Below, piece by piece: positions 12,929 to 21,157 of a stretch of 55,904 nt of DNA. Under the pieces are notes generated by a model, which saw only the letters and a program-made list of their open reading frames with translations, did no database searches and was not told where the DNA came from. Origin of the DNA: Acidimicrobiia bacterium (lineage in GTDB: Bacteria > Actinomycetota > Acidimicrobiia > ATN3 > PSLF01); contig PSLF01000013.1 of assembly GCA_040289475.1 (NCBI GenBank), forward strand, positions 1 to 55,904, given 5' to 3'. The position numbers and the translations under genes were made by a program. How positions within the stretch are numbered: position 1 is the first letter of the stretch; the number at the start of each line of letters is the position of its first letter.

Positions 12929-14104
12929 ATGAAATCGCCGCGTGTTTTGCGGTGGCAAAAACAGAGTCAGCACCGGCATGCGCAGCTTAGGGAGGGAACA
13001 AACTTGAGAATTACGCATCCTGTAACCCTCCTCAACACAGCGCGCGCCTCGGCGACCTCCAATGACCATCGCTCGTCCCGGTTGAGCGATGTTTGCGAAT
13101 GCTCGGCCAGAAGTGATCTAAGCGTAATAGTTCCAGCGTTCAATGAAGAAAAAACGTTACAGAAAACGCTTCCGAGCGCGATAGAGGTTGCTTCGTCTCA
13201 CGGCAGCTGCGAGCTGATTGTAGTAGACGATGGCTCAACCGACGACACGCTGAGGGTGGCTGGCCGGATTTTAGAGAATTTTCCCCGAAGTGAGCTGATA
13301 TGGCATCCCCACAACCGTGGAAAAGGAGCTGCGGTCAAAAGCGGGGTGACACGGGCCCGAGGCAAAACAATCGTATTCGTCGATGCAGATTTAGCCCCCG
13401 ACCTTCGCACGGGCTTGGATCGGGCCATAAAAGAGCTAGAGTCGGCGGATGTGGCTATAGCATCAAGAGCTCTACCGGATTCGGAAGTCGTGGGCGCTAC
13501 CGTGTCGAGACGAGCGCTGGGCCTTGGTTTCAGAACGCTCAGGAGAATGTTGTTTGATTTGGAGGTAGCGGACACGCAATGCGGACTAAAGGCCTTCAGA
13601 GCAGGTCCGGCCAAAGTACTGTTCCATTCGCTGAGATCTACAGGATTTGTTTTCGATGTAGAACTGTTGCTTACAGCCCGCTGGTTAGGTTTGGATGTCG
13701 CAGAGTTCCCTGTTAGGTGGGTTGCGTATGGAGCTTCTGCTGTCAATCCCATAGTTGACAGCGCAATGATGGCGGCTGGACTCTTAAGATTGCGTTTCCG
13801 GTCCCAAGTTCCTCCGCCGGTTCCTTGCGTGGAGTTCTTTGGACGTCAACTTGATTTCTCCCATAGATCGCGCTTAGTGAAGGTCCTACGCCACGGGGAT
13901 CTTGTGGTTCATAGGGAAGACCGCATCGCAATTTTGCTCTTTTGTTCCCCTCTGGAGGCGGCAAGGGCTGTGGCAGGCAGGATCCCACACTTGTTCGACC
14001 TTGAGGATGCGTTAGTTTCATCCATTCCGGGTGACGAGGCTCTCCGCCTCGCCCGAGAGGCATTCAATTCGGTGCGGGACGACGTCCAGTTTGTTTTCGC
14101 ATGA
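12929..14104 (+). CDS. GT2 glycosyltransferase, DPM1/Alg5-like, with an extra C-terminal domain
   Basis: 391 aa. The catalytic GT-A domain covers about 65-290: LSVIVPAFNEEKTL, IVVDDGSTDDT, the metal-binding DAD in VFVDADLAPD, and ADTQCGLKAFR. This matches dolichyl/polyprenyl-phosphate glucose or mannose synthases that load sugars onto a lipid carrier at the inner face of the membrane. The last 90 residues are unusual: LRHGDLVV...AILLFCSPLEAARAVAGRI resembles a GGDEF/cyclase-type fold in spacing but lacks GGDEF. Start ATG 12929 follows GAGG at 12918-12921. Its stop overlaps the methyltransferase start (ATGA), so it is the first gene of the envelope glycan operon. Confidence 0.85.
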   Translation: MKSPRVLRWQKQSQHRHAQLREGTNLRITHPVTLLNTARASATSNDHRSSRLSDVCECSARSDLSVIVPAFNEEKTLQKTLPSAIEVASSHGSCELIVVDDGSTDDTLRVAGRILENFPRSELIWHPHNRGKGAAVKSGVTRARGKTIVFVDADLAPDLRTGLDRAIKELESADVAIASRALPDSEVVGATVSRRALGLGFRTLRRMLFDLEVADTQCGLKAFRAGPAKVLFHSLRSTGFVFDVELLLTARWLGLDVAEFPVRWVAYGASAVNPIVDSAMMAAGLLRLRFRSQVPPPVPCVEFFGRQLDFSHRSRLVKVLRHGDLVVHREDRIAILLFCSPLEAARAVAGRIPHLFDLEDALVSSIPGDEALRLAREAFNSVRDDVQFVFA

Positions 14105-14844
14105 TCGGAAAATCGAGGTCTTTACCACGACGGAGCCTTCGGCGGTCGCTCCGGCTTTTTTGCGGCTTTTTGGCCGAGCGGAGCGACCCCGAAACCTTCT
14201 ATACAGCTTTGGCAGAGGACACTTGCGAAATTCTCTCAGCCTTCGTGGACTTTTCAAGGAGTTCGGTCCTGGACATCGGAGGCGGGCCCGGCTACTTCGC
14301 AGAAGCCGCATCGAAACGGGGGGCGAGGACGATTACAGTTGACTGCTCGGTCCAAGAGCTCTCGCTCCATGGTCGACAGCCTAATTTGGCGGTGTTGGGA
14401 GACGGCATTGCGCTTCCTATAAAGGATGATAGTTTCGACCTGGTCCACACTTCGAACGTATTGGAGCATGTGCCGTCAGTCTCTGACTTCTTGGACGAGA
14501 CGATCCGTGTGACCAAAAGCTCTGGAATCATCTTCGTTTCTTTTACAGTGTGGCTTTCTCTTTGGGGTGGGCACGAAACATCGCCGTGGCATCTTCTGGG
14601 AGGTGAGAGAGCAGCCAGACGTTATCACCGAAAACACGGGAAACCTCCCAAGAACCGTTTTCAAGAGAGTTTGTTTCCTGTGTACATTTCGGATTTCGAG
14701 AGACTCGTAAAGAACCGGCCTAACGTCTCGATACTGGAGTCCTTTCCCCGCTACTACCCGCACTGGGCGTCATTCCTGGCTCGACTACCACTTATGCGAG
14801 AGTTCGCCACTTGGAACTACGCAGCGATTCTCTCGAAGGCATAA
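14101..14844 (+). CDS. Class I SAM-dependent methyltransferase
   Basis: 247 aa. SAM-binding motif I is VLDIGGGPGYFAEAA (about 56-70). The acidic residue ending strand 2 is in TVDCS, motif II is ALPIKDDSFDLVHTSNVLEHV, and a later motif is SGIIFVSF. This is the Methyltransf_11 type. The C-terminal third (WHLLGGERAARRYHRKHG, YYPHWASFLARLP) is typical of actinobacterial methyltransferases beside AftD-type arabinosyltransferase genes, so a sugar or lipid-linked intermediate is a plausible substrate. ATGA overlap with the glycosyltransferase, and a 34-base overlap with the next gene. Confidence 0.85.
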   Translation: MIGKSRSLPRRSLRRSLRLFCGFLAERSDPETFYTALAEDTCEILSAFVDFSRSSVLDIGGGPGYFAEAASKRGARTITVDCSVQELSLHGRQPNLAVLGDGIALPIKDDSFDLVHTSNVLEHVPSVSDFLDETIRVTKSSGIIFVSFTVWLSLWGGHETSPWHLLGGERAARRYHRKHGKPPKNRFQESLFPVYISDFERLVKNRPNVSILESFPRYYPHWASFLARLPLMREFATWNYAAILSKA

Positions 14845-17800
14845 AGGGCAAGGTCGCCTTTTGGCTTGGCGCTGTTGCCTTCTCGGCATCGTCTTTTGTT
14901 GCGCTATCGATCACTTCCAGATTCGTGCCTGAGGGGACGGTTGCGGGAATCTCGGCCATCTTGGCCCTGTCTCTGGTTGTTGCAGTGGTGCCTGGCTATG
15001 TACAGATTGACCGAGCGGCAAGAGCCTCTGATGTCCGCTCGGCAACAGCGAGCTTGTCGGTGGAGCCGTCTTCTTTTGAGATCGGATACGCGGCACTGGC
15101 ATTGTTCATCGCTGCGCTTGCCTCTGTGGTAACAGCTCGGATCCTCAACCTCGACTATGTGGGCACTTTTGCGGTGGCACTTCAGTTTTTCCCGGCCCTA
15201 AAGCTCTCCTCATATAGGGGATTGCTCATGGGATCGGAGAGTTTCGGAGCGCTTGGCATGTCCTACGCCACGGAAGCAACGGTCAGGTTAGCTGTGTCGC
15301 CAGCGCTTGGCATCCCGTTGAAAGAGGGCGGTTTTGGGGCAGGACTCCTGTTAGGCACCTTGGTATCTCTCGTTGTCACGAAGCATCTTTGTACCCGAAG
15401 CGGAAATTTTGAGACAGCGGCAAGCGAACCTGACTCGAGAGGAAACAGCCGCCGTTCGGGGGCGATTCCGTCTCTCGCCGCTGGCTCAGTTGCCATTGCT
15501 AGCGCACTTGTTCTTGCTAATGCCGATCTGCTGACCATTTCGGCCAGGCTCTCGCCACACGAGGCTGACAGGTTTGCCGCAGCTTCCATTCCCGCCAAGG
15601 GAGTTTTTTTGGCTCTGTTCGTAGGAGGATGGATGTTCTTTGGAAGAGTGCGGCGAAGCGGCGATGCATCAGAAGCTGTGCGACTGGGTGTTATAACGGC
15701 TGGTTGCGGGGTTGTTCTGAGCGCATGCGCTGTAGCAGCCTCTCCGCTTGCCTTTTTCGCTCTTTCCAAGCCCCGCGAATCTATCTGGCTCGTCGCTGTG
15801 GTGTGTATGGCTATGGCATTGGCATCTGGGACGTGGACCCTTACCAACCTTTCGCTTTCGCTAAATGGCGCTTATACATGGGCCCCTCCACTTTTTGGGA
15901 TCGGGATCTGGGCATTGGCCAGTTCGTCAGCGCACACGTCGGTTGATCTCGCAGTCTCGCTGTTGGCAGCTAACTACGTAGCGTTCGTTTTGGCGAGTAT
16001 ATATACCTCCCGTCTCCGAACAACATCGCGGCCGCACTTTGAGCATTGTTCAAAGAAAAAGCGGATGGGAGTTGCAAAAAAAATCCGCTCTGTAGCGAGC
16101 CAATTTGCCAAAAGAGTTGGCATGGATCCTCTCTTGGGGTATGTCTCGCTCGTTGCCATCGCTGGTGTGTGTTTCGCTCAGCAGCCGGGCAAGATCGTCT
16201 CTGACACGAAAATCGATATGGCCATCGACCCACTCTTTTTCCTCCGAAGGGCTTATGACATGTGGGAGCCCCTCGGTTACTTCGGGCACGTTCAGAACCA
16301 GTCGTATGGCTACTTGTTCCCAATGGGTCCTTACTTTGTGGCCGCTAAGTACTTTTCGCTTCCAATGTGGATTGCACAGCGCGTTTGGATCTTCGGGGTG
16401 GCGGCCACGGCGTTCACCGGTGTTTGCTTTCTAGCAGCTCGTCTCGGAATCGGGACACCTCGCACCCGCATTGCAGCAGCGGGTTTTTATGTAACAGCCC
16501 CAATTTATGCCTCCCTCGTGGCCTTTACATCTGCTGCCGTCCTTCCCGGCTCATTACTCCCATGGATGATTGGAGCTTTGGTGCCGAGAGATCGCCGTTG
16601 GACACCCCTGGTCGGAGCTTTGCGCTCATCCGCTGCTTACGCTTTGGCAGGGGCTGTTAACGCCGCGGCGACTCTTGCCGTTTTACCGGCTGTAGCGGTG
16701 TATTTGATCACGACCAAGCTCTCGGCATATCGCGCAGGGCACAACCGCTCCCGCCCACTCTCTAGCCCCAAGCTGCAATTGATAGCTGCCACAGCGGTCT
16801 TATATGCCCTCGCTTCGGTCTGGTGGTCGATTCCTTTGATCCTTTTGAGGACGTATGGATTCAATTTTCTCCAGTACACGGAGTCCGCCGTGGCGGCTGC
16901 TTCGACTCAGTCTCTATTCGAGTCAATGCGTGGGAGTGGGTACTGGCTAGCGTACTTGAATCTTCGCCGACCGTGGCTTCCAGGTGGATGGGAGTACGTC
17001 TCCTCCCCTGTTCTGGTAGTCGCCAGCGGTACTGCGGTAGCCGTTGGCCTCGCAGGTTTGGCTTTTCTAGGAGCGAGGAAGCGGTTGTTTCCCGCTGTTT
17101 TGTTTTTGCTAGGCGTGGCTGCGAGTGCCGGACCCTACTGGTTCTCCGGCGCAGGCATTTTTCACAAGGCGATTCTCGCGATGTTGGGAGGACCTCTGGG
17201 GGCATTACGAAACGTCTCAAAGTTCGAGTTCCTGGTTACTCTCCCGCTCTCGCTAGGGTTGGCGCACTTTGCCCCTGCTCTCAGGGTGTTGTCCATTGGA
17301 CACTCATCCGGCCAAAAGCGGGTTCTTGCAGCCTTATCGATGGTGGCCGTGGGGGTCAGCATTTTGATGATGACTATCCCTGCGATACGGGGACAGCTGG
17401 CGACCCGGGGCGGGTTCGAGGCAGTGCCTCAGTACTGGCTAGACGCCGCCAGATGGCTAAACGATCACTCGGGGCATGATCGGGTGGCGGTGATTCCGGG
17501 TGCTCCGTTTGGGGAGTACCAGTGGGGGAGACCGTTAGATGAAGTACTACAGCCGCTCTCTCATGTGCCTTGGGCGGTCCGTAGTTTGATTCCTCTCGGA
17601 GGAACTGGAAGTACGAGGCTGTTGGACGCAGTGGAAAACCATCTCCTAGGCCAGGTACCCTCGCCGGGACTGGCTCCTGCTCTTACTTCTGCTGGGATAA
17701 GGTATTTGGTCGTCAGGAACGATCTCGACTGGCGTGCCTCGGGAGCACCGAGGCCATTGCAGGTCAAGAAAACCTTGGAGGCTTCTGGCGGATTCGTAGA

Positions 17801-20558
17801 GGTTGCAGCGTTTGGAATTCCCGAGAAGAAAGATCCCTCTTCCGCCCCGCAGAGCGAGTCTACAGCTGTCGATGTCGTCGAAGACCTCGGCGTCAGCCAA
17901 GAGGAGGCGAACCTTCCCAAGGTCGTTGTCTACGAGGTTTCAGGAAGTGAGCGGCCGGTCTCGCCTGTCGGCACGGTAGAAATTAGCGACATAGCGATTG
18001 TCTCGGGCGGACCGGAGAGCCGCATAACTCTGGACGAAACCAAACAGCTTCAAGGCACCCCCTTTGTGCTTGCATCCGACGAAAAGACGCTGTTGGCTCT
18101 CGAAGACGTCGCAGGCCACATCTCGCACGCGGTGCGCACCGACGATTTGCGGAGACGGGACCACGATTATGGTTTGGTTCACTACAACTACTCCTACACC
18201 CTGGGGCCTAGCGAGAGACCCACGGGGATGGGAGCTCAGTCGGGCCTGAATGAAGTCGCCGAGGGGGTATCGCGGGGAGGCGAGACCCCCCGCGAGATTT
18301 TGCCGCCTACGTCCGACACACATAAGACCACCCGTCATTTCGAAGGAGCGGCCTCGATTACGGCGTCTTCCTACAGTTCGTGGCTCGTTCAATTGCCGGA
18401 GCTGCGTCCTTATGCTGCGTTTGACGGGGACCCTAGAACTGCGTGGGTCACCGGTGCTCCGGGTCGCTCCAAAGGCGAGTGGATACAAATCGAATTTGAT
18501 GAGCCTAAATCATTGCAAGGCATCACAATAACGCCACTTCTCGATGGCCCCTTCAGGCCAGCGATCAGGGCTGTCAAGGTAGAGACCGACTCGGGCTCAT
18601 CCGTATCCCGTCTAGAACCTTCCGAAGTTGCCCAGCCTGTACAGGTACCGCCGGGTTCGACGCGCCGGCTCCGAATTCTGCTATGGGATGTGGAGGGAGA
18701 GGAAAATGTGGGCTTGTCGGGCGCAGGGATACGAGAGATTCACATTCCAGGAGTGTCGGTGCAGGAGGTTCTAGATGTCCCTTCGGATTCTGCTGCGGGG
18801 CTCGAATACGTCGTGCTCTCTCGATCTCGTCTGCACCCGTCTTTGATCGGTCGATCTGATGAAGAGCCCATCTTGAGGCGCTCGTTCTCTATGAGCTCAG
18901 AGGGCACCTACACTATCGAAGGATTGGTTGTTCCCCTTCCCGGTGACGAGCTCGACAAACTGATTGCGGTAAGAGGACCGGTGAACATCTCCGCTAGTTC
19001 TACCATGAACGGACTTCCCGAGTTCAGGGCCTCCAACCTTCTAGATGGAGACACCGCTACTATTTGGGCGGCCTCACTACCTACAGTTTTGCCCAATCCG
19101 CTCGGTTTGTGGGAGGGTCCTAAGGCTTACACTGGTGCTCAAACTAAGCCACCAACCTACGAGGGGATTCAGGGAAGGCGCGATCCCTCGCCTAGTCTGG
19201 TTCTAGATTTCGGTCACCCTATCACCCTCGGAGAGCTTCGAGTTGTGACTACTACTGCAGGTCCCGTGTCGCCGCCTCGTAGCCTCCGCATTGTCGGCGA
19301 GCACGACGTAGTAGAGGGCGATCTTGTATCGGACGGGTGGGTAAGGTTCCCTCCTCTAACCACTCGAATTCTGCGGATCGAGTTTCCCTCTATACGGGTA
19401 AGGATGTCGGTCGACTCCATGACTGGAATCGCGACTCCACTTCCTGTGGGGTTTTCAGATCTCCAAATTCCGGCTCTCGGAGACGTCAAGTACTCAGTGC
19501 CGCTTCCTTCGGAGGAGTTTGTGCTCCCATGCGGATTGGGGCCGCCGGTGGTTGTCGATGGAGAGCTCTTCGACACCGAAGTTCACGGAAAGATCTCAGA
19601 TCTCATCTTTATGCGCCCCTTTTCCTTTCGTGCCTGCCGCTCCTGGGTCGTACAGGATAATGGTCGCTCACACCGTATCGAGGAGACCGAAGGCTCAAGA
19701 CCGTTCGCTCTCTCTCAGGTTAGAGTTGTTCGCATCGACCGAGAACCCCCCGATCAATGGAGCAAAAGGCGAGATTTCCATGAGGTCTCGGCCAAGGCCG
19801 AGCTTCTTTCGCGGCGCGAGGTATCTGTCGAGGAGTGGGGGCCCCGGAAACGGCGATTGTGGATCGAACCGGGGCCAGAGAGAATCTTGTATATCAACGA
19901 GAACGCAAACATCGGATGGAAAGCCAATCTGGGCAGTTTTGAGCTGAAGCAGGTGACGCTGGACGGATGGAAGCAGGGGTTTTTGCTTCCGGAAGGGGTT
20001 GGGGGAGAGGTGCAGCTCATATATAAACCAGGACGACTCCACAGCCTTTCACTAATCATTGGCCTTTCGCTAGTGGCGCTTGTGATAACTGCAGCGATCT
20101 TGATCGGCGCGTTCTTGTACACTAATCGCTGGCAGGTCGAGGGGTCTCGACTGTATGCCTATGGACAGATGAGAGCTAGCGCCAGCAATCTGTGGATGAT
20201 GGTCGGAGTGGGTGGCGTGTGTCTCGTTGCCGCGGCAGTTAGCGCTCCTCTCGTTCCTATTGCGCTCGTTATAGCCGCAGGAGTTTGGGCACGACGCCGT
20301 CTGCTTTCGTACTTGAGATTGGGTATAAGTTGTGCTGTCATTTCCGCCATTGCCTTCGCCGCAGCGACCACTTGTGCTGCACTGGGGGTTCCAGCCACTC
20401 CCGCCCAAACCAAAGGACCATTTGGGATTTGGGCACAGCTAGCGGCAGGGGTGGCGATGATCTTTGCGCTGCTTCCGGCTGCATGTTTGGCTTTGCCCTG
20501 GCGGACACCGAGGTTACTTCTCGACGGTGTCCCTGATCGATTGCGTCAAACAAAATGA
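14811..20558 (+). CDS. aftD: Flippase-like domain fused to AftD-type alpha-(1->3)-arabinofuranosyltransferase
   Basis: 1915 aa in one unbroken frame, about 500 longer than typical AftD. Residues 1-405 are membrane helices with Wzx/MurJ (PST) features: KLSSYRGLLMGSESFGAL, EATVRLAVSPALG, NADLLTI...AASIPAKGVF. A charged linker (406-445) leads to the AftD GT-C domain: the catalytic-loop acidic residues Asp465 and Asp469 in PGKIVSDTKID, then FGHVQNQSYGYLFPMGPYF (about 487-505) and more helices to about 880. Extracytoplasmic beta modules follow, two of them discoidin/F5_8-like (AAFDGDPRTAWV near 1205; ASNLLDGDTATIWAA near 1407), then three or four C-terminal helices. AftD adds arabinofuranose to arabinan from a lipid donor outside the membrane. 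Start TTG 14811 is uncertain; an internal ATG at 16065 (residue 419) could make AftD alone. Confidence 0.88.
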   Translation: MELRSDSLEGIKGKVAFWLGAVAFSASSFVALSITSRFVPEGTVAGISAILALSLVVAVVPGYVQIDRAARASDVRSATASLSVEPSSFEIGYAALALFIAALASVVTARILNLDYVGTFAVALQFFPALKLSSYRGLLMGSESFGALGMSYATEATVRLAVSPALGIPLKEGGFGAGLLLGTLVSLVVTKHLCTRSGNFETAASEPDSRGNSRRSGAIPSLAAGSVAIASALVLANADLLTISARLSPHEADRFAAASIPAKGVFLALFVGGWMFFGRVRRSGDASEAVRLGVITAGCGVVLSACAVAASPLAFFALSKPRESIWLVAVVCMAMALASGTWTLTNLSLSLNGAYTWAPPLFGIGIWALASSSAHTSVDLAVSLLAANYVAFVLASIYTSRLRTTSRPHFEHCSKKKRMGVAKKIRSVASQFAKRVGMDPLLGYVSLVAIAGVCFAQQPGKIVSDTKIDMAIDPLFFLRRAYDMWEPLGYFGHVQNQSYGYLFPMGPYFVAAKYFSLPMWIAQRVWIFGVAATAFTGVCFLAARLGIGTPRTRIAAAGFYVTAPIYASLVAFTSAAVLPGSLLPWMIGALVPRDRRWTPLVGALRSSAAYALAGAVNAAATLAVLPAVAVYLITTKLSAYRAGHNRSRPLSSPKLQLIAATAVLYALASVWWSIPLILLRTYGFNFLQYTESAVAAASTQSLFESMRGSGYWLAYLNLRRPWLPGGWEYVSSPVLVVASGTAVAVGLAGLAFLGARKRLFPAVLFLLGVAASAGPYWFSGAGIFHKAILAMLGGPLGALRNVSKFEFLVTLPLSLGLAHFAPALRVLSIGHSSGQKRVLAALSMVAVGVSILMMTIPAIRGQLATRGGFEAVPQYWLDAARWLNDHSGHDRVAVIPGAPFGEYQWGRPLDEVLQPLSHVPWAVRSLIPLGGTGSTRLLDAVENHLLGQVPSPGLAPALTSAGIRYLVVRNDLDWRASGAPRPLQVKKTLEASGGFVEVAAFGIPEKKDPSSAPQSESTAVDVVEDLGVSQEEANLPKVVVYEVSGSERPVSPVGTVEISDIAIVSGGPESRITLDETKQLQGTPFVLASDEKTLLALEDVAGHISHAVRTDDLRRRDHDYGLVHYNYSYTLGPSERPTGMGAQSGLNEVAEGVSRGGETPREILPPTSDTHKTTRHFEGAASITASSYSSWLVQLPELRPYAAFDGDPRTAWVTGAPGRSKGEWIQIEFDEPKSLQGITITPLLDGPFRPAIRAVKVETDSGSSVSRLEPSEVAQPVQVPPGSTRRLRILLWDVEGEENVGLSGAGIREIHIPGVSVQEVLDVPSDSAAGLEYVVLSRSRLHPSLIGRSDEEPILRRSFSMSSEGTYTIEGLVVPLPGDELDKLIAVRGPVNISASSTMNGLPEFRASNLLDGDTATIWAASLPTVLPNPLGLWEGPKAYTGAQTKPPTYEGIQGRRDPSPSLVLDFGHPITLGELRVVTTTAGPVSPPRSLRIVGEHDVVEGDLVSDGWVRFPPLTTRILRIEFPSIRVRMSVDSMTGIATPLPVGFSDLQIPALGDVKYSVPLPSEEFVLPCGLGPPVVVDGELFDTEVHGKISDLIFMRPFSFRACRSWVVQDNGRSHRIEETEGSRPFALSQVRVVRIDREPPDQWSKRRDFHEVSAKAELLSRREVSVEEWGPRKRRLWIEPGPERILYINENANIGWKANLGSFELKQVTLDGWKQGFLLPEGVGGEVQLIYKPGRLHSLSLIIGLSLVALVITAAILIGAFLYTNRWQVEGSRLYAYGQMRASASNLWMMVGVGGVCLVAAAVSAPLVPIALVIAAGVWARRRLLSYLRLGISCAVISAIAFAAATTCAALGVPATPAQTKGPFGIWAQLAAGVAMIFALLPAACLALPWRTPRLLLDGVPDRLRQTK
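16076..16083 (+). other. A8 run in the linker of the flippase-AftD gene; possible slippage site
   Basis: Eight consecutive A residues, in phase as GCA AAA AAA ATC, giving the A-AAA-AAA heptamer used in -1 slippage. It lies exactly between the flippase and AftD modules. After a -1 shift the next stop is TGA at 16202-16204; after a +1 shift it is TAG at 16093-16095. Either shift would give a flippase-only product of about 425-465 aa. I see the motif; slippage itself is inference. Confidence 0.3.
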
Positions 20559-21157
20559 ACCCGTTACGAATCGAGAGAGCTGCTGCGCGGACGATTGTCA
20601 TCTTTCTTGCAATAGAGGCTACTGCATCCCCTGCAGCGGCTCACGCCTTTGGCTCATCGAGGACACCCGCTTGGGGGATTGCAGTGGTTTTGGGAGGCCT
20701 CGTTTCATCACTAGCCGGCATTGGTCTATCGGCGAGAGGGCGCAGAAAGCTGGGCTTGGGAGCATTCGCGGCAGGCGCCGCACTTCTTAGCGTCGCTATG
20801 ACCGGTTTCTCGCTCGACACCGGCTCTTGGACGTCTCCGGCTCAGGTAAAGATCGTAGAGCCGATGTGGGGATCCAAAGTCAATAGCCCGGTGAAACTTC
20901 GCGTAAATCTGGTCAACGGGACACTCGTTCCTCTCGACAGAAGCTCGGGCCCGCCCACAGAAGGCCACCTCCATGTCTACGCAAACGGGAGGGCAGTAGG
21001 AATGTTCGTTGACTTGGAAGAGGATCTTCAGCTCCCGCCTGGGCGTTACGTGCTGCAAGTAGAGTTCGTGGGTGCCGATCATCACTCATTCTCGCCCCCT
21101 GTAGCAGACACCGTCGAAATCGAAGTGCTTCCTAACAAGGCTCAGGACGAGAGATAG
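20555..21157 (+). CDS. Membrane-anchored extracytoplasmic protein, DUF4399-like
   Basis: 200 aa. The N-terminal hydrophobic stretch (about 11-30, ending AAAHA) looks like a signal peptide or first helix, followed by two more helices (37-56 and 66-84). From 95 on is an extracytoplasmic beta domain: KIVEPMWGSKVNSPVKLRV, EGHLHVYANGRAVG, LPPGRYVLQVEFVGADHHSF. The pattern of Pro-x-x-Gly, Gly-His-x-His and ADHH resembles small secreted domains (DUF4399-type) often found beside copper or CopC-like proteins. The His residues could bind metal; unproven. The ATG overlaps the aftD stop (ATGA), and a CopD-like gene follows 57 bases on. Confidence 0.7.
   Translation: MNPLRIERAAARTIVIFLAIEATASPAAAHAFGSSRTPAWGIAVVLGGLVSSLAGIGLSARGRRKLGLGAFAAGAALLSVAMTGFSLDTGSWTSPAQVKIVEPMWGSKVNSPVKLRVNLVNGTLVPLDRSSGPPTEGHLHVYANGRAVGMFVDLEEDLQLPPGRYVLQVEFVGADHHSFSPPVADTVEIEVLPNKAQDER

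What the first reader, a model, noticed from the sequence alone, without database searches (positions are those of the whole stretch)
14811..20558. Flippase fused in frame to an AftD arabinofuranosyltransferase
The first 405 residues look like a polysaccharide flippase (PST/MurJ-like helices), and the rest is AftD-like with DUF3367 features and two discoidin-like modules. This fuses a lipid-linked sugar transporter to the enzyme that uses lipid-linked donors, possibly coupling flipping to polymerisation. Mycobacterial AftD lacks this part.
Basis: partly seen in the sequence, partly recalled or inferred. Interest (0 to 1): 0.7.

Follow-up and report, generated by a model that had tools for sequence, protein, structure and literature searches.

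The report
Sugar-lipid flippase joined to AftD glycosyltransferase
One very long bacterial gene joins a membrane flippase for lipid-carried sugars to the AftD enzyme that uses such sugars on the outer face of the membrane; in related bacteria the two are separate, overlapping neighbour genes, so the joined form suggests that flipping and sugar transfer work as one machine.

Summary
Window 14811-20558 is one open frame of 1915 aa. Residues 452-1136 are a GT-C_AftD domain (E 8e-179) with CBM modules and C-terminal helices. Residues 1-405 match no Pfam model directly, but profile comparison places them in the Polysacc_synt (MOP) flippase family (hhalign 99.2%, E 2e-19; reversed and GT-C controls negative), with the family's conserved charged residues kept. 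The same fusion exists in a Solirubrobacterales MAG (L034). In three related genomes (L038, L210, L211) the same flippase and AftD are separate genes whose stop and start overlap by 4 bp (GTGA). An orthologous DPMS/PpgS-like GT2 lies upstream in the window, L034, L038 and L210, so synthase, flippase and GT-C resemble a three-component extracytoplasmic glycosylation system with two parts fused. Donor identity is open: no mycobacterial DPA pathway (DprE1, Rv3806c-type UbiA) or Emb was found in the host genome. Main caveat: the only A8 run in the window (16076-16083) lies in the linker, and one base fewer would end the flippase seven codons on. AlphaFold models were too poor to use. I rate this a new domain architecture of known parts: a new variant of a known kind.

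The parts
14811..16025 (+). MOP-superfamily (Polysacc_synt-type) flippase domain, residues 1-405, about 12 predicted helices; TTG start overlaps the upstream methyltransferase gene by 34 bp
   Evidence: hhalign 99.2% / E 2e-19 against flippases, controls negative; A3 v A4 E 1.7e-15; conserved R37, Q65, R136, G137, G141, R159, N237, D239, K263
16026..16163 (+). Basic linker (KKKRMGVAKKIRSVASQFAKRVG), predicted cytoplasmic, leading into AftD helix 1
   Evidence: 12 K/R against 1 D/E in the loop; sequence
16076..16083 (+). A8 run in the linker, the only run of 8 or more A or T in the window; A7 gives a stop at codon 428, A9 at codon 465
16164..18218 (+). GT-C_AftD catalytic domain (PF11847), residues 452-1136
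   Evidence: PDB 6wbx/6w98 aligned
18354..18764 (+). First discoidin-like / CBM_AftD module, residues 1182-1318
   Evidence: PF24607 E 3e-10, PF00754 E 1e-9
18987..19469 (+). Second discoidin/CBM-like module (weak)
   Evidence: PF24607 E 0.006, PF00754 E 0.084; similarity to first module E 3e-4
20052..20495 (+). C-terminal four-helix region of AftD
   Evidence: hydropathy
12929..14104 (+). GT2 glycosyltransferase, DPMS/PpgS-like, candidate polyprenyl-phosphate-sugar synthase; orthologues upstream of flippase-AftD in L034, L038, L210
14101..14844 (+). SAM methyltransferase; homologues adjoin AftD in many genomes; 4-bp overlap with the GT2 gene
20555..21157 (+). Small membrane/secreted protein with DUF4399-like end, 4-bp overlap with the fusion gene

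Best explanation
The gene encodes a flip-and-transfer protein. A MOP flippase domain moves a polyprenyl-linked sugar made in the cytoplasm, most likely the polyprenyl-phosphate-sugar donor produced by the upstream DPMS/PpgS-like GT2, to the outer leaflet. The AftD-type GT-C domain fused to its C-terminus takes it from there and transfers the sugar to a glycan held by the CBM modules. It arose by in-frame joining of two neighbouring genes, flippase then aftD, that in relatives overlap by 4 bp. Shown: the open frame, the domain families, the second fused genome, the overlapping gene pairs, the upstream GT2. Inferred: flippase activity, the nature of the substrate (donor rather than acceptor), physical hand-over, expression as one chain.
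For: Domain assignment. Family-conserved charged residues retained, including D239, invariant in 47 of 47 sequences. Same fusion in L034, GT-C 39% and flippase 28% identical to the window. Separate genes with GTGA 4-bp overlap in L038, L210, L211. Flippase within 6 kb of AftD in 25 of 93 AftD domains surveyed, the label being clustered on the AftD tree. GT2 orthologues upstream in the window, L034, L038 and L210 (43% identity to L038), with hits to DPMS 5mlz and full-length PpgS coverage. The basic linker fits positive-inside topology, with flippase C-terminus and AftD N-terminus both cytoplasmic. Precedent for donor synthase + flippase + GT-C systems for pentofuranoses: PMC11127046.
Against: No experiment. 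MOP flippases such as WzxE are best known for pyrophosphate-linked oligosaccharides (PMC11706664), and a GT4 adjoins flippase or AftD in most relatives, which would fit an acceptor as cargo. Structure models unusable (pLDDT 42.5 and 38.2), fold search uninformative. The A8 run at the join. Fusion rare: 2 of 93 AftD domains.
Confidence: 0.5

Rival explanations
1. Same fused protein, but the flippase domain carries AftD's acceptor: a polyprenyl-pyrophosphate oligosaccharide built by GT4/GT2 enzymes is flipped and handed to AftD's CBMs, while the donor is flipped by another protein.
For: MOP/Wzx flippases are known for PP-linked oligosaccharides (PMC11706664); GT4 genes adjoin AftD or are fused to the flippase in many relatives (L139-L143); AftD has CBMs of the kind that bind acceptors (PMC11127046).
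Against: No homologue of that GT4 in this window, while a DPMS/PpgS-like GT2 is constant in the four flippase-AftD loci of this type that have enough upstream sequence.
Confidence: 0.27
2. The fusion in this genome is an assembly or sequencing indel at the A8 run; the true arrangement is two overlapping or closely spaced genes, as in L038.
For: The only A/T run of 8 or more in 55.9 kb lies exactly in the linker; with 7 A the flippase frame stops seven codons on, and an ATG follows at 16122. Three relatives have two genes.
Against: L034 is fused in an unrelated assembly without this run, and third-position GC keeps one frame across its join. The residues just after the run are basic, as expected for AftD's cytoplasmic N-terminus.
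Confidence: 0.1
3. The A8 run (GC A AAA AAA ATC) is a slippage site, so that cells make both the fused protein and a free flippase.
For: Fits the X XXY YYZ pattern in frame.
Against: No unusual downstream RNA structure (z -1.1); no such run in the L034 linker.
Confidence: 0.05
4. The flippase domain is a membrane anchor or assembly platform without transport activity.
For: A fused helical domain could simply tether AftD in an envelope complex; no transport was measured here.
Against: Charged and glycine positions conserved across free flippases are retained.
Confidence: 0.08

Closest known systems
AftD (PF11847) of mycobacteria and corynebacteria, PDB 6wbx/6w98
   Same: GT-C domain, CBM modules and C-terminal helices; falls in the same clade (100/100) as mycobacterial-type and Nocardioides AftD
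   Different: Extra N-terminal flippase of about 405 residues; in the host genome no Emb, DprE1 or Rv3806c-type UbiA was found
Polysacc_synt / Wzx-type MOP flippases
   Same: Profile homology over most of the length, conserved motif residues
   Different: Fused to a GT-C enzyme; normally free proteins
Three-component extracytoplasmic glycosylation systems (GtrB-GtrA-Gtr; pentofuranose system of PMC11127046)
   Same: Polyprenyl-phosphate-sugar synthase-like GT2, a flippase and a GT-C encoded together
   Different: Flippase is of the MOP family and fused to the GT-C; in PMC11127046 the flippase, called MATE there, is a four-helix EmrE/ArnE-like protein
MprF and AglD
   Same: Precedents for a flippase domain fused to an enzyme of the same pathway (PMC5898192)
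   Different: There the partner is the synthase upstream of flipping, and the flippase is of another family (COG0392)
GT4-flippase fusions next to AftD in Thermoleophilia
   Same: Same type of flippase, fused, near an AftD gene
   Different: Fused to a cytoplasmic GT4 rather than to AftD

Membership tests
AftD (PF11847) | Full-length GT-C_AftD domain above curated cut-off | tested here: met
   596 bits v cut-off 26, profile positions 4-653 of 661
AftD (PF11847) | CBM/discoidin modules after the GT-C domain | tested here: met
   PF24607 and PF00754 above cut-off; second module weak
AftD (PF11847) | Grouping with mycobacterial-type AftD | tested here: met
   14-row clade, support 100/100
AftD (PF11847) | Uses decaprenyl-phosphoryl-arabinose to extend arabinan | not testable with these tools
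   Activity needs an assay; DPA pathway genes and Emb not found in the host genome, 97% complete
Polysacc_synt/MOP flippase | Direct match to a Pfam flippase model | tested here: not met
   No Pfam family at E <= 1 for residues 1-420
Polysacc_synt/MOP flippase | Profile homology to Pfam-recognised members over most of the domain | tested here: met
   hhalign 98.5-99.2%, E 1.7e-15 and 2e-19; controls negative; of 24 aligned members 11 match PF01943 and 6 match PF13440
Polysacc_synt/MOP flippase | 12-14 helices in two lobes (MOP fold) | tested here: inconclusive
   About 12 helices split 6+6 in the model, but pLDDT 42.5 and no significant fold match
Polysacc_synt/MOP flippase | Transports a lipid-linked sugar | not testable with these tools
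   needs an experiment
Three-component glycosylation system | Pol-P-sugar synthase, flippase and GT-C encoded together | tested here: met
   GT2 12929-14104 plus the fusion; conserved in L034, L038, L210; the synthase activity is inferred from similarity only

The most novel reading that the evidence does not exclude
A single polypeptide couples transbilayer flipping of a polyprenyl-phosphate sugar to its immediate use by a GT-C transferase, and the overlapping flippase-aftD gene pairs elsewhere in Actinomycetota mark MOP flippases as the missing donor flippases of AftD-type enzymes.
Probability: 0.35. Interest if true: 0.78.

Novelty: new variant of a known kind. Interest (0 to 1): 0.52.

Why it matters
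[quoted passage not shown] A natural fusion, backed by overlapping separate genes in relatives, names a specific flippase family as AftD's partner and gives one protein in which flipping and transfer can be measured together. The literature searches on AftD and on flippase fusions returned no paper describing this architecture; most subscription papers are not in that library.

Tried and rejected
Direct Pfam, NCBIfam, PHROG and PDB sequence searches with the N-terminus: nothing relevant. A 24-member profile against PDB gave only three insignificant hits, E 1.8-3.4; one of them (6hfb) is described as a MATE transporter of the MOP superfamily. Checked whether other AftDs with long open frames are fusions: the three upstream stretches examined (L041, L044, L139) are arginine-rich non-membrane frames of high-GC DNA. 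Considered that the discoidin modules were imagined: one is solid, one weak. Considered PMC11127046 as a MOP-flippase precedent and rejected that: its 'MATE' ORF14 is a four-helix EmrE-like protein. Programmed frameshifting at A8: no structural support.

Full report
Observation. The window holds one open frame at 14811-20558, 1915 aa from a TTG start that overlaps the preceding methyltransferase gene by 34 bp. Pfam finds GT-C_AftD at residues 452-1136 (E 7.7e-179), CBM_AftD at 1199-1318 and F5_F8_type_C at 1182-1259; the two PDB AftD sequences align from residue 453 on. A second discoidin-like stretch near 1393-1553 is weak. Residues 1-420 hit no Pfam family.

What residues 1-405 are. A homologue was found as the N-terminal part of one ORF in L034, a Solirubrobacterales MAG, and as a free gene in L038. 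A profile of window + L034 + L038 aligns with free flippases, several of which Pfam calls Polysacc_synt, at 98.5%, E 1.7e-15. Against 20 flippases it reaches 99.2%, E 2e-19, and the window sequence alone reaches 98.1%, E 1e-13; the AftD GT-C domain and reversed flippases, used as controls, give 0.2-0.5%. Positions conserved across 47 flippases (R37, Q65, R136, G137, G141, R159, N237, D239, K263) are kept. This alignment was recruited with the window sequence among the seeds, so it is somewhat biased towards it. AlphaFold with the few sequences allowed was poor, and fold search gave nothing, so the MOP fold itself is not shown.

Fusion or artefact. In L034 flippase and AftD are also one frame of 1830 aa, with high third-position GC in the same frame on both sides of the join. 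In L038, L210 and L211 they are two genes overlapping by GTGA, stop TGA and start GTG. The window, L034 and L038 lie together with mycobacterial-type and Nocardioides AftD in a 14-row clade (100/100). Within it L034 groups with the two-gene locus of L038 (same genome as L145 in the tree), so the fused state needs two changes on the tree: two fusions, or one fusion and one split. The host's second AftD (C9:60869-62980) is not fused and groups with the one same-order genome in the tree. The caveat is the A8 run at 16076-16083, the only such run in the window: A7 would end the flippase seven codons later, and an ATG lies at 16122. I give about 10% to the fusion being an indel in this assembly.

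Neighbourhood. Of 93 AftD GT-C domains with flanks, 2 are fused to the flippase and 25 have a flippase within 6 kb, the fused ones included. No chance expectation for that number was computed. The flippase is also found as the C-terminal half of GT4-flippase proteins beside AftD in Thermoleophilia. GT4 and methyltransferase homologues adjoin AftD in many genomes. The window's GT2 (12929-14104) has orthologues upstream in L034, L038 and L210 (E 1e-47 to 1e-55; 43% identity to L038) and resembles dolichol-phosphate-mannose synthase and PpgS, though it also resembles other GT2 enzymes at similar strength. The L034 GT4 has no counterpart in this window. The constant set in these loci is therefore GT2 + flippase + AftD, which is what a three-component system needs. 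L211 is too short to show what lies upstream.

Mechanism. I commit to donor flipping coupled to transfer: GT2 makes a polyprenyl-phosphate sugar, the flippase domain carries it across, the GT-C domain uses it. The linker is strongly basic and should be cytoplasmic, which puts the flippase C-terminus and AftD's N-terminus on the same side, as a working fusion requires. In WzxE an arginine-rich C-terminal tail is essential (PMC11706664); the linker could serve that role, which is inference. The rival is acceptor flipping. The sugar is unknown: UbiA-family proteins found in the host are CtaB and two MenA-like enzymes, the ALO protein is not DprE1 (67.6 bits v cut-off 500), and Emb was not found, so D-arabinose from DPA should not be assumed. 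The genome is 97% complete, so absence is not proof.

Known or new. AftD, MOP flippases and three-component systems are known; flippase-enzyme fusions are known from MprF and AglD (PMC5898192). A MOP flippase fused to AftD or another GT-C enzyme was not found described in the open library. I therefore call it a new variant of a known kind.

Noticed in passing
window 16076-16083: Only run of eight or more A or T in the window; sits exactly at the flippase/AftD join and fits an in-frame slippery heptamer.
   Followed up: partly
L139:15015-17732 (-), and the corresponding ORFs in L140, L141, L142, L143: Polysacc_synt-type flippase domain in one frame with a GT4 glycosyltransferase (Pfam-checked in L139, L140, L141), on the opposite strand beside AftD in Thermoleophilia; an assembly enzyme joined to its likely exporter.
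   Followed up: partly
L053:277-3651 (+): Polysacc_synt flippase followed in the same frame by a GT2 domain (Pfam), another possible flippase-glycosyltransferase fusion, in a genome of the same class as the window.
   Followed up: no
host genome G000, C13 and C9: Two AftD homologues in a genome where no Emb, DprE1 or Rv3806c-like UbiA was found, so the donor of AftD here is not explained.
   Followed up: partly
window 12929-14104: The GT2 has a C-terminal extension of about 95 residues with no Pfam match, absent from the L038 orthologue.
   Followed up: no
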